From NCBI GenBank assembly GCA_030247885.1, contig JAPDRO010000012.1, forward strand, positions 806,001-870,000: DNA of 64,000 nt, read 5' to 3'. Shown here piece by piece: positions 1 to 61,609 of this stretch. The notes beneath the pieces are model-generated. The model saw only the letters and a list, made by a program, of their open reading frames with translations. It was not told where the DNA came from and ran no database searches. This stretch comes from Taxawa tesnikishii (nom. ined.) (lineage: Eukaryota > Ascomycota > Dothideomycetes > Dothideales). The position numbers and the translations under genes are program-made. Within the stretch, counting starts at the first letter, position 1, and each line of letters opens with the position of its first letter.

Positions 1-587
1 TGTGCAGGGCGCAGCGGACGCGAAGAGGTGTGCGGACGAGGGGTCGAGGGCGTTGTGCTAAGCAATCACGGTGGGCGGAGTATAGACACGTAAGTTCTCT
101 TCCGCCATGCTGATGCTGCGGTGGTGTCCCGATTTAGGACCGGGTTTGGCTGATTTATCGATACAGTGCTCCGCCGGCGGTCATGTTGCTGCTGGAATGT
201 CAGCGTTGCTGTCCCGAAATCTTCGACAAGCTTGAGGTCTACGTAGACGGCGGCATTAGGCGTGGCACCGACATCCTGAAGTGTCTCTGCTTAGGCGCCA
301 CAGCTGTAGGACTCGGTCGGCCGTTCCTGTACGCGCTCAACTACGGGCAAGAAGGCGTCGAGCATCTCGTTGACAGTAAGTATATGTTGAGTCGAAAACC
401 GTTATGTCAGACCTGACACGTCACAGCGCTGAAAGACGAACTCGAAGTCTCGATGAAGATGGTCGGGATCACGGATCTGAGTCAAGTGCATCCCGGGTTG
501 GTGAATACACTCGACGTGGATCACTTGGTGCCGTCGAGTCTCGAGGGCCATCCCTATGCCAAGTGGCGGCCTAGGGCGCGGTTGTGA
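1..587 (+). CDS. CYB2: FMN-dependent alpha-hydroxy-acid dehydrogenase (L-lactate dehydrogenase / cytochrome b2 type), 3' part
   Basis: Only the C-terminal third lies in the window; the gene begins upstream of base 1. Visible family motifs are the active-site/FMN stretch VLSNHGGRSIDT, then VYVDGGIRRGTDILKCLCLG and ATAVGLGRPFLY, which form the phosphate-binding end of the TIM barrel, and a tail containing MKMVGITDLSQV. Two introns fit: about 92-164 (donor GTAAGT, acceptor ATACAG, rejoining SIDT to APPAV) and about 375-435 (donor GTAAGT). The enzyme family oxidises L-lactate or a related 2-hydroxy acid with FMN; cytochrome b2 also carries an N-terminal heme domain, which cannot be seen here, so the exact substrate is open. 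Near base 40-43 the reading frame steps by one base inside a GGGG run: VQGAADAKRCADEG is in one frame and the SNHGG motif in the next. A missing G explains it. The stop at 585-587 follows a GHPYAKWRPRARL tail. Confidence 0.82.
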
Positions 588-1027
588 GGGGCGAAGGAAG
601 CCGATGTGGAGATACCTTTGAATCATTCGAGAGCAATAGATCCGTGTTGTTGTGGAGCATTCCTGGGTGATGCGATGGAGCCAATGGATAGCATTCTGTT
701 TGACGAAGACAATAGCGGATTGACGAGTTGCAAGCGAGGCTCAAATGGTGCTTCGGCAAAGAAGCGACTGCAAGCTTGAATGGCAAGGGAGCGAAGTGAA
801 TAGGAAGAGCACTGATCCAACTATTCTGCTATGCCGCCACTAATCTACGAGCCCTGGCTGCAGCGTCCAAGGCCTCTTACATCCACAACGGTGTATAGGG
901 GTACTGTACGAAACATGAAACAAAACGGCGCCAATTAGCGACAAGCAACAAAACAATCCAACCACAAAGCCCCGATAGAGCTACTTTTATATGTCAGTTA
1001 GGTCTTTTTCTCCCCACCTTTCTCTTT
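588..1027. other. Intergenic, convergent 3' ends
   Basis: Sits between the 3' end of the dehydrogenase and the 3' end of the bZIP gene on the other strand. I see no coding signal; it should hold both polyadenylation regions. Confidence 0.5.
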
Positions 1028-2051
1028 TCATTCGATTTTGGCAGCCTCCTTCCCGGTCCCAACACCCTTCTTCCTCTCCTCGCTACTCCTCTCGCTCTCA
1101 TCACCCTGCTCACCTTCTTTCTTACTGTCGACATCGAGTCCCTTGATGTTCTTCTCGGTAATGAGGCCCTTGAGCCATTTATTCTCCATCTCCAGCTGTC
1201 CCACCCTCGCCTCGAGCACCTGCACCTTCTCGCTCATCTCCTTGGCCGTCTTCTCCAGCGCTTGCTCCCGCTGCTTCTTCTTCACACGGAAACGGGCTGA
1301 GGCGGCGGTATTGCGGCGACGCTTGTCTTCCTCGGCGGCAGCGCGTGAGGCTTCCTCAAGGTCGGCGGCCGAGGGGCTTTACGCTTGTCACCTGTCTGTG
1401 GAGATGGTTGTGCGGGGAAGGTGTGCTGCTGCGGTTGAGCAGGCAGTTGGGCTTGTGGTGGGTAGCCGACCATGCCGTTGGGAGGCGTGGGAGGCAGTCC
1501 CTGAGGAGATGAGTGGGCGGTCACCGGGTGAGGGTAGCCGGGGAAACCGGAGAACTGGAAGTTGGTCTCTGCATAGAGCGAGTCGTTAGCCATTGCCATG
1601 TACGGAATCAAATATCGAGAACATAAATAAGCTGTATGTGGTGGTGACAGGATGATATGATGGGTCAGTAGTATTGACATCATCGGTATCATCCAGGCAG
1701 GCATCGGAGCGCAGCATAGATATGCGCCAGCCCACACCCTCAACCCTCAACCCACTGCATCTATGTCTCTGTGTATGGAGTGGTGATATAGATCCAAAAC
1801 CTACCGTTGCCGAAGCCCACACCGTTCTCCTGTCCCACGTTCTGACCCTGCTGCTGCTGCGGTTGCTGCGGCGCGCTAAAGTCTTGAAGTCCCGGAAGTT
1901 CATAGAACTCGGTATTGGTGAACATAGCCAGGCTATCCTCGAAGTCCGGGAAGTCATTTTGGGCAGCCAAGTCGGCCTGGGAAGGGATCGAGTTTAGACC
2001 TGCGATGTACTGCGACACGTTCGGTGCGCGGCGGCCATTGTAGTTGGCCAT
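1028..2051 (-). CDS. bZIP transcription factor, Cys3/MetR-like sulfur regulator
   Basis: The C-terminal exon encodes a bZIP domain: basic region RRRNTAASARFRVKKKQREQ followed by a leucine-zipper helix (EKVQVLEARVGQLEMENKWL, then KGLITEKN). NTAASARFR and the NKWLKGLITEKN ending are typical of Neurospora CYS-3 / Aspergillus MetR, which activate sulfate uptake and methionine/cysteine genes; that role is inferred from the family. Best model: exon 1 1805-2051 (MANYNGRRAPNVSQYIAG start, glutamine-rich middle), one long intron 1569-1804 (GTAGGT...GCAG), exon 2 1028-1568, giving 262 aa if one base is restored. Just before the basic region the frame steps at a GGGG run (1373-1376 on the + strand): GDKRKAP is in one frame and SAADLEEASRAAAEEDKRRR in the next. 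The break would remove the DNA-binding domain, so a missing base in the assembly is more likely than loss. The 236 nt intron is long for this genome and may hide a small exon. Confidence 0.83.
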
Positions 2052-59330: not shown

Positions 59331-60143
59331 GTTAACGTTGGTGATGTTAGCGAAGGGCAGAGCTCATGCTTGTCAAAGGTTGGTTTGCATGAAAGACAGA
59401 TTGTGTTCCACGGTAGCGATGAGGTTGTTCAGATTGAGCTACACCGACGGTAGGACAGTCGGCGGAATAAGAACTCGTTCGTGTGAGTTGAGGAGATGCA
59501 AGGCTGAAGCCCTCTCTCAAACACATATGATGATGAGCGGAGCAGCCCTGGCTGTACCTCTGACAGTTATCGCCCCCTTGAAGGAGGGTGGCTGTTGGCA
59601 TACAGCTCTCCGCCATCCAGCTGGAACATGGACGGATTGCATATCCTAACATGATACCTAAAAACAGAAGCGTTGATACATAAACGGGGCGCAGGGCACA
59701 CCTACACGAGCTGGGGCGGGTTGTGAGGCACAGCAAAGGCGTTCTTGGCGCTTAAGTAGGGCCGCAATTCAAACAAGGTTACAGGGAAGTAACTACACAC
59801 ATACCATCCATACCCCCGAAGCTAGAGACTATCCGCCGTCATTTCGTGCAGCCCGCTTCAGTCCAATCTTATCAGTGGGTGAGATCGATCGTTAGAATCC
59901 CTCTTTCAGGATCTTCGTGCCTTCATTGGCTCGATAGGCCCTGTTTTTGCTGTGGTGGCTACCTCGGCGGCAAATCAAGCAACTGAATGCAGCGCCTTGC
60001 CGATACATATCGTGCTGACGAGTGTTGAGCGACGATACAACAAGTTCCTGGCGTTTCAGCGGAAGACGTACTGTTTGCGTTCTGGAGGAGCGACCGACGT
60101 TCGAACAAGCTCTGCGGGAGACCCTCAATCGTACCGGGGCACG
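59331..60143. other. Intergenic, no gene recognised
   Basis: About 0.8 kb between divergent genes; no supportable frame. Contains the promoter of the MpaB-like gene. Confidence 0.5.
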
Positions 60144-61609
60144 ATGAGCACAAACACCTCCATCTTCATCGGTGATGATTCAACTCTACAACCATCGGGC
60201 TCATTTGGACTCTCCTTCCCGTCAGAGTCATGGCTTCCGCAAGCTGTATGCGCTGCATTGGCTTACTTGCTGGTGGTGCGGTTGTTACGATATCGCAGGC
60301 TGGAAGCGACTTTCCGGACGACAAAGTACAAGACCAGGGCCGACTACGGGTCCATGACACTGGGGGATGCCCACAGCATACAACTTGCTCTTGCTGAATT
60401 AGAGTTTCCGAAAGTATTTTCAAGTTCCGTATTCTTTGCCTTGTTCAAGGTATGTACAGCATCGCCTAACGTACACTCCCGAGCTAAGCGTACTCTCAGA
60501 CGTACGGTATTCCGAGTATATCGCGACTTCTTGTCGCCACCGGACAACTGGCAAGCGATGAGACAGCTTCGAAGAGGGCGGCCGATACCAGCATCATCTT
60601 AACAGAGGTGGTACTCAATAATCCAACGTCCAAGCGGACGATCGACGGCATTGCGCGCATGAATTATCTGCACGATCGCTATCGCAATGCGGGCAAAATC
60701 TCTGATGCTGACATGCTTTATACTCTGAGTCTGTTCTGTTTGGAGCCTATCCGCTGGACAAACAAGTACGAGTGGCGGACCTTGACCGATTTGGAGCGGT
60801 GCGCCATGGGCACGTTCTGGAAGAACATGGGAGAGGCCATGAGTATCCCGTACACGCTTCTGGAACACAACAAACAAGGCTGGACGGATGGTCTGCATTG
60901 GCTGGAAGATCTGGAGGCCTGGAGCCTGCAGTACGAGAAGGCTTACATGGTGCCAGCGGAGTCGAACAACAAGCTTGCGCGGATTACCCTGGACCTTGCA
61001 TTATACAAACTCCCAAGCGCGTTGCACGGTATTGGCTGTCAGTACGCGGCGGCGTTGCTTGAACTCCGGTTGCGCAAGGCTATGATGTAGGTTTGGTGCC
61101 CCCAGAAGTCAGCTGAAATGGCTGACTGACTGCTACCGCAAAGCGGGAATGGTCGAGAACACTGGGCACGAAGAGCCATATGCTAAACTATATACCAGGA
61201 TCAAAGAGCCCGGCACCTTCTTCACCACGACACTCTCAGCTGTTCTCCAAGCACGGAAATACTTCATTCGTTACCTGCTCCTCCCACGACCGTACTGGCT
61301 CCGCAAGCGCTGGTTCTCAAGCGAACCTGACAAGGCAACTGGGAAATACCACCCTGCGCGCGCGATAGCCCATCCGTGGTACATAGCGCCAAGCGTATAC
61401 TCTCGATGGGGTCCGATGGCATGGATCACCTGGCTCTCCGGGAAGCCGTTACCAGGCGACGGGGAGACAAGTATGAGCCCGAGGGTTACTTGCTCGCTGA
61501 GGTCGGGCCTTCGGCGCTCAAAGGCAAGGGCGGAGCGGAGATGAAGGGAGAGAGGATGAGGGTTGAGAAGTTGAATATGAGGGTGGGATGTCCATTTGCA
61601 AAGTGGTAA
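60144..61609 (+). CDS. ER-bound oxygenase, MpaB/DUF2236 (rubber-oxygenase-like) family
   Basis: Exons 60144-60449, 60500-61086, 61199-61609; 434 aa with one base restored. After a short luminal tail there is one membrane anchor (AVCAALAYLLVVRLL, about residues 33-47). The DUF2236 domain follows: SSSVFFALFKTYGIPSISRL, SIILTEVVLNNPTSKR, GIARMNYLHDRYRNAGKISD, DMLYTLSLFCLEPIRWTNKY and EWRTLTDLERCAMGTFWKNM. The histidine of MNYLHDRY and the Arg/Asp/Glu cluster around TLTDLER are the conserved features of this helical, heme-type fold. The C terminus has PRPYWLRKRWF, AHPWYIAPSVYSRWGPMAW and KYEPEGYLLAEVGPSALKGK. MpaB cleaves a farnesyl side chain in mycophenolic acid synthesis; this paralogue has no biosynthetic neighbours and its substrate is unknown. 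The frame steps at GGGG (61461-61464), fixed by one G. Intron 2 (61087-61198) rejoins KAMM to IKEPGTFFTTTL. Confidence 0.88.

What the first reader, a model, noticed from the sequence alone, without database searches (positions are those of the whole stretch)
40..61464. About 14 conserved genes' frame breaks, all of the one-missing-base type in short homopolymers
Frame steps occur at: 40-43 (G), 1373-1376 (G on +), 12979-12983 (A), 16303-16305 (G), 16570-16572 (G), 37935-37937 (A), 40726-40729 (C), 41184-41185 (G), 46921-46923 (G), 54010-54013 (T), 56794-56797 (C), 57352-57355 (G), 57452-57455 (C) and 61461-61464 (G). Every one is solved by adding a single base to the run, and family sequence continues without other damage. 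Random mutation would give insertions and deletions of mixed size plus stops. The bias points to systematic homopolymer undercalling in the assembly. Automated annotation would split or truncate at least ten genes here, including HIS3, SLA1 and CYP53.
Basis: partly seen in the sequence, partly recalled or inferred. Interest (0 to 1): 0.7.

Follow-up and report, generated by a model that had tools for sequence, protein, structure and literature searches.

The report
Frame breaks from undercounted base runs
Many genes in this stretch of a fungal genome look broken, most probably because the assembly dropped single bases in short runs of the same letter, so this is an ordinary data-quality problem and not biology.

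Summary
The observation mostly holds. The window is G000:C4:806001-870000 of a 29.4 Mb, 34-contig assembly. At 14 of 14 listed places the best-scoring reading frame changes, against 48 of 1500 control exon positions. For 11 of 14 the evidence supports a step one base short at or beside the named run; five of these rest on profile or protein arithmetic with no room for an intron. Two are inconclusive (16303, 37935). One is misplaced (54010: ankyrin frame already set by 53990). The breaks lie in 10 genes, not 14.

A direction-neutral coding model finds 19 one-base-short and 4 one-base-long steps; 12 of 19 lie beside a run of 4 or more, against 13.8% of control positions. G/C runs of 6 or more number 7 against 29-37 expected in 214 kb, and runs outside predicted coding sequence are cut too. 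Genes elsewhere show the same step: CCT, HSP70 and PTPA. One gene just left of the window steps the other way.

This fits an under-polished long-read assembly, a problem already in print for fungi (PMC7500977, passages). No reads were available, and the platform is unknown.

The parts
40..43 (+). Frame step, one base short, in an FMN-dependent dehydrogenase gene that starts left of the window
   Evidence: FMN_dh profile 185-224 ends at L003:9998 and 237-257 starts at window 34 in another frame: 35 nt for 12 positions
1373..1376 (-). Frame step, one base short, just upstream of a bZIP domain
   Evidence: Coding-model path del1 at 1374; bZIP_2 at 1184-1336 on the minus strand
12979..12983 (+). 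Frame step, one base short, between the two halves of an ABC transporter (described only)
   Evidence: del1 at 12979; ABC_membrane starts at profile position 2 at 12999 in the new frame, inside the intron 12986-13035 that offers instead
16303..16305 (+). Possible frame step in the proline-rich part of SLA1; inconclusive
   Evidence: By eye; intron 16347-16408 offered instead; one search reads one base long
16570..16572 (+). Frame step, one base short, inside the SLA1 PH-like domain
   Evidence: PH_SLA1 enters at profile position 27 of 91 at 16571; the 83-residue piece before it gave no PH_SLA1 match on its own
37935..37937 (+). Possible frame step in a gene of no known family; inconclusive
   Evidence: By eye; no family match at E 0.001 and only weak unrelated ones up to E 1; one search reads one base long with nearly tied frames
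40726..40729 (+). Frame step, one base short, in a cytochrome P450 gene
   Evidence: del1 at 40721; the short piece before it, 40574-40723, has no Pfam match alone
41184..41185 (+). Second frame step, one base short, in the same P450 gene; a run of five C lies next to it
   Evidence: p450 profile 193-346 ends at 41178, 350-460 starts at 41193 in another frame: 14 nt, no intron room; del1 at 41164
46921..46923 (+). Frame step, one base short, about ten residues before the end of HIS3 (imidazoleglycerol-phosphate dehydratase)
   Evidence: HisB residues 70-177 at 46573-46896 and 188-195 at 46926-46949: 29 nt for 10 residues (the second piece has E 13 by itself)
53858..54013 (+). Frame change between a C2H2 zinc-finger frame and an ankyrin frame; not at 54010 but at or before 53990; step or splice junction undecided
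   Evidence: Ank_2 match starts at 53990 in the new frame, zinc fingers in ORF 52497-54059
56794..56797 (+). Frame step, one base short, in an S53 (sedolisin-type) peptidase gene
   Evidence: del1 at 56799 (offers an intron 56703-56803 instead); Pro-kuma_activ at 56289-56606
57352..57355 (+). Second frame step, one base short, in the S53 peptidase gene
   Evidence: S53 homologue residue 337 ends at 57355 and residue 338 starts at 57355 in the next frame (E 0.006 each, over 2.2 kb searched); offers an intron 57355-57430 that would remove this aligned stretch
57452..57455 (+). Third frame step, one base short, in the S53 peptidase gene
   Evidence: Homologue residues 332-355 end at 57420, 363-523 start at 57462 in the next frame: 41 nt, no intron room
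61461..61464 (+). Frame step, one base short, in a gene of uncertain family
   Evidence: and three-frame view; only a sub-threshold PA2794-like_C match to its right (E 0.0029)
28280..32230 (-). Long unbroken SNF2-type ORF (1316 aa, stop to stop), the intact counter-example
   Evidence: SNF2, HSA, bromodomain, QLQ, SnAC in one frame

Best explanation
The assembly undercounts single bases in runs of one letter. The cell's own genes are intact; the consensus sequence lost one base at many runs of about four to six, which shifts the reading frame. Shown: frame steps, their direction, their closeness to runs, the shortage of long runs, and the same step in conserved genes on other contigs. Inferred: that the reads came from a long-read platform with too little or no short-read polishing, and that the true DNA has the longer runs.
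For: 14 of 14 sites change best frame against 48 of 1500 control positions. Steps without intron room at 40, 41184, 46921, 57352, 57452. Direction-neutral model: 19 short to 4 long after removing duplicate rows from overlapping loci; 12 of 19 short steps have a run of 4 or more within 26 nt against 13.8% of 3000 control positions, 0 of 4 long ones. Synthetic control finds both directions alike: 50 of 60 removals, 41 of 60 additions, 0 of 60 false. Run spectrum over 214 kb: G/C runs of 6 or more 7 against 29.4-36.6 expected, A/T runs of 6 or more 28 against 47.0-49.5, 0 of 100 simulations as low for either; outside predicted coding sequence the chance that a run grows from 5 to 6 also falls (0.075 for G/C, 0.151 for A/T). 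Elsewhere: 2 of 27 neighbouring hit pairs of CCT, ALDH and HSP70 are exactly one base short, 0 of 27 one base long, the other 25 leave 38 nt or more; PTPA on contig C1 is read in three frames with profile 1-92, 93-198, 197-292, one base short at both joins. Precedent: fungal nanopore-only assemblies with most errors in homopolymers and fewer than one-sixth of 305 genes full length before polishing (PMC7500977, passages).
Against: No reads or second assembly. Some steps are of the other sign (4 of 23; FMN_dh at L003 near 9859; 25496 in the window). A/T runs of 7 or more are not short (10 against 10.2-12.1), and the AT-rich locus L009 shows no significant shortage. 7 of 19 short steps have no run of 4 or more within 26 nt. 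Density looks higher in the window than in the conserved families (2 in 39.4 kb matched). In PMC7500977 the long-read polished versions erred more towards added bases, so the present bias would fit an unpolished consensus better than a polished one.
Confidence: 0.93

Rival explanations
1. Some of the listed steps are ordinary short introns or exon borders misread as frame breaks.
For: The genome has introns of about 50-60 nt (extra lengths of 49-61 nt in many of the 25 intron-sized pairs); prefers introns at 12986-13035, 16347-16408, 56703-56803 and 57355-57430; HIS3 has such a gap at 46.53-46.58 kb.
Against: At 40, 41184, 46921, 57352 and 57452 there is no room for one; the introns offered at 12986 and 57355 would remove aligned domain sequence.
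Confidence: 0.12
2. The genes are truly broken: decaying copies or a strain that lost them.
For: The letters as given do break the frames.
Against: Outside the steps the frames stay open and family sequence continues; conserved housekeeping genes (CCT, HSP70, PTPA) elsewhere show the same one-base step; direction is biased.
Confidence: 0.02
3. The runs are truly short in the DNA and the cell makes up for it by programmed frameshifting or by adding bases to the RNA.
For: Nothing direct; reads and RNA were not available.
Against: No slippery heptamer of the form X XXY YYZ (Y being A or T) within 12 nt of 0 of 14 sites, and runs outside predicted coding sequence are shortened as well.
Confidence: 0.01

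Closest known systems
Homopolymer indel errors in nanopore-only fungal assemblies (Drechmeria coniospora, PMC7500977, passages seen)
   Same: Filamentous-fungus genome, errors mostly in runs of one base, conserved genes with shifted frames, runs of 4 or more counted as the risk
   Different: There, polishing gave more added than missing bases; here missing bases prevail. Platform and organism are not known here
Indels at low nanopore coverage in ascomycete assemblies (PMC9453082, passages seen)
   Same: Indels in runs lead to frameshifts in conserved genes
   Different: That paper counted indels in three BUSCO genes at known coverage; coverage here is unknown
Programmed -1 ribosomal frameshifting (recalled)
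   Same: Would also be needed once per one-base-short step
   Different: No slippery heptamer at any of the 14 sites, and many unrelated genes are hit

Membership tests
Assembly homopolymer undercount | Frame steps biased to one base short | tested here: met
   19 to 4; 2 to 0 of 27 hit pairs
Assembly homopolymer undercount | Steps lie at runs of one base | tested here: met
   12 of 19 short steps beside a run of 4 or more against 13.8% of control positions
Assembly homopolymer undercount | Long runs scarce across the genome, outside coding sequence too | tested here: met
   for G/C runs of 5 and of 6 or more and for A/T runs of 6 or more; not met for A/T runs of 7 or more nor for locus L009
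Assembly homopolymer undercount | Same fault in conserved genes on other contigs | tested here: met
   CCT and HSP70, PTPA twice
Assembly homopolymer undercount | Accurate reads disagree with the consensus | not testable with these tools
   No reads available
Programmed -1 frameshifting | Slippery heptamer X XXY YYZ at the step | tested here: not met
   0 of 14 sites within 12 nt
Ordinary fungal intron | At least about 40 nt between the last residue of one frame and the first of the next | tested here: not met
   Not met at 5 of the 14 sites that could be measured by homology; undecided at 16303, 37935 and the ankyrin gene

The most novel reading that the evidence does not exclude
The organism's DNA really has these short runs, and its translation or RNA processing supplies the missing base in many unrelated genes.
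Probability: 0.01. Interest if true: 0.95.

Novelty: already known. Interest (0 to 1): 0.1.

Why it matters
Gene models, gene-loss claims and pseudogene counts taken from this assembly would be wrong for many genes. It is also a caution for sequence scans: frame breaks, apparent short introns and lost C-termini in this genome should be taken as errors until reads say otherwise. It has no wider biological meaning.

Tried and rejected
Dispersed 5S rRNA copies as a non-coding yardstick: 47 scored of 1720 candidates, 44 of 47 spans are exactly 120 nt, but the 19 copies that I fetched and aligned differ too much from each other to count dropped bases. Solved structures as yardsticks for the S53 gene: no match for two of three pieces, a match for the third; a bacterial S53 protein from a plasmid served instead. 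The first tblastn script for it gave no rows because of a wrong option and was rerun. The first codon-only model was too weak to choose between introns and steps. Aldehyde dehydrogenases gave 0 steps in 3 neighbouring pairs, with 11 of 48 candidates scored. The organism could not be named: no held collection of fungal records was available to compare with.

Full report
What it is. The window is G000:C4:806001-870000 of an assembly of 29,367,862 bases in 34 contigs. Family matches such as SLA1, HIS3-type IGPD and CAP59 and gaps of about 50-60 nt between profile pieces look like a filamentous fungus; no tool named the organism.

The 14 places. I scanned each strand frame by frame with X at stops and looked at the three frames by eye. 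A coding model trained on 87,366 nt outside the window scored 96 nt on either side of each place: the best frame changes at 14 of 14, against 48 of 1500 control exon positions, which were drawn away from predicted introns and steps. Eleven read one base short and three one base long (16303, 37935, 46921). At place 40 only 39 nt lay to the left.

Homology arithmetic. FMN_dh: 35 nt for 12 profile positions across place 40. P450: 14 nt between profile positions 346 and 350 at 41184. HIS3: 29 nt for 10 residues of a Sphingomonas HisB at 46921, the end piece being weak by itself (E 13). S53 peptidase: successive homologue residues share one base at 57355, and 41 nt separate pieces in different frames at 57452 (E-values are for 2.2 kb searched). 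None of these leaves room for an intron. For 1373, 12979, 40726 and 56794 the coding model chooses a one-base-short step at the settings listed. For 16570 the PH_SLA1 profile enters at position 27 in the new frame at 16571. For 61461 there is and the eye only.

Against. The first and the last would remove aligned domain sequence; the second leaves 16303 open. Place 37935 has no family and nearly tied frames. At 54010 the ankyrin frame is already set at 53990, so that place is wrong by 20 nt or more, and a splice junction is not excluded. The model also proposes one step of the other sign in the window, at 25496. The 14 places belong to 10 genes.

Direction and context. With equal cost for both directions, the model finds 22 short and 5 long steps at one setting; after removing rows repeated by overlapping loci, 19 and 4. 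Twelve of the 19 have a run of 4 or more within 26 nt, against 13.8% of 3000 control positions; 0 of the 4 long ones do. Seven settings gave raw ratios from 28:7 to 14:2. On random synthetic coding sequences the model found 50 of 60 removals, 41 of 60 additions and 0 of 60 false steps.

Run spectrum. In 214 kb (window and 15 loci of 10 kb; the AT-rich L009 taken apart), G/C runs of 6 or more number 7 against 36.6 or 29.4 expected (order-2 and order-3 simulations), G/C runs of 5 or more 121 against 172.8 or 152.2, and A/T runs of 6 or more 28 against 47.0 or 49.5; 0 of 100 simulations were as low. A/T runs of 7 or more are not short (10 against 10.2 or 12.1), and L009 shows no significant shortage. 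Outside predicted coding sequence the drop at 5 to 6 is present as well. That speaks against an explanation in translation or RNA.

Elsewhere in the genome. Of 27 neighbouring hit pairs of CCT, ALDH and HSP70, 2 are exactly one base short (one CCT, one HSP70), none one base long, and 25 leave 38 nt or more (from; letters at the two steps). PTPA on contig C1 is split over three frames with unbroken profile coverage and two one-base-short joins. The FMN_dh gene just left of the window also has a step of the opposite sign near L003:9859-9875. The density in these families, 2 in 39.4 kb, is below that in the window; the window was picked because of its breaks and the family search scores only some candidates, so I draw nothing from the difference.

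Mechanism. Most likely the consensus lost single bases at runs of about four to six because the base caller or consensus step undercounts runs and no accurate reads corrected it. The steps are shown; the cause is inferred. In print: passages of PMC7500977 report that most errors in nanopore-only assemblies of the fungus Drechmeria coniospora sat in homopolymers, with fewer than one-sixth of 305 genes full length before polishing, though polishing then added more bases than it removed; passages of PMC9453082 report indels in runs at low coverage in ascomycetes. Other papers were seen only as listings.

Verdict.

Noticed in passing
window 23879-23892: A run of 14 C, far longer than any other run in the window (the next are T7), inside an ORF with a DUF7896 domain.
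   Followed up: no
L009 (G000:C5:500001-510000): A 10-kb stretch of 26% GC in a genome of about 53%: an AT-rich island.
   Followed up: no
L003:9846-9875: The FMN_dh gene left of the window has a step of the opposite sign (one base long or two short) about 150 nt before the step at 40.
   Followed up: partly
window 25496: The coding model proposes a one-base-long step near the end of the DUF7896 gene; weak.
   Followed up: no
L040-L058 (19 copies): Dispersed 5S rRNA genes differ much from one another, with a few decayed copies.
   Followed up: no
L006:2388-2699 (G000:C1): PTPA gene with two one-base-short steps about 310 nt apart.
   Followed up: yes
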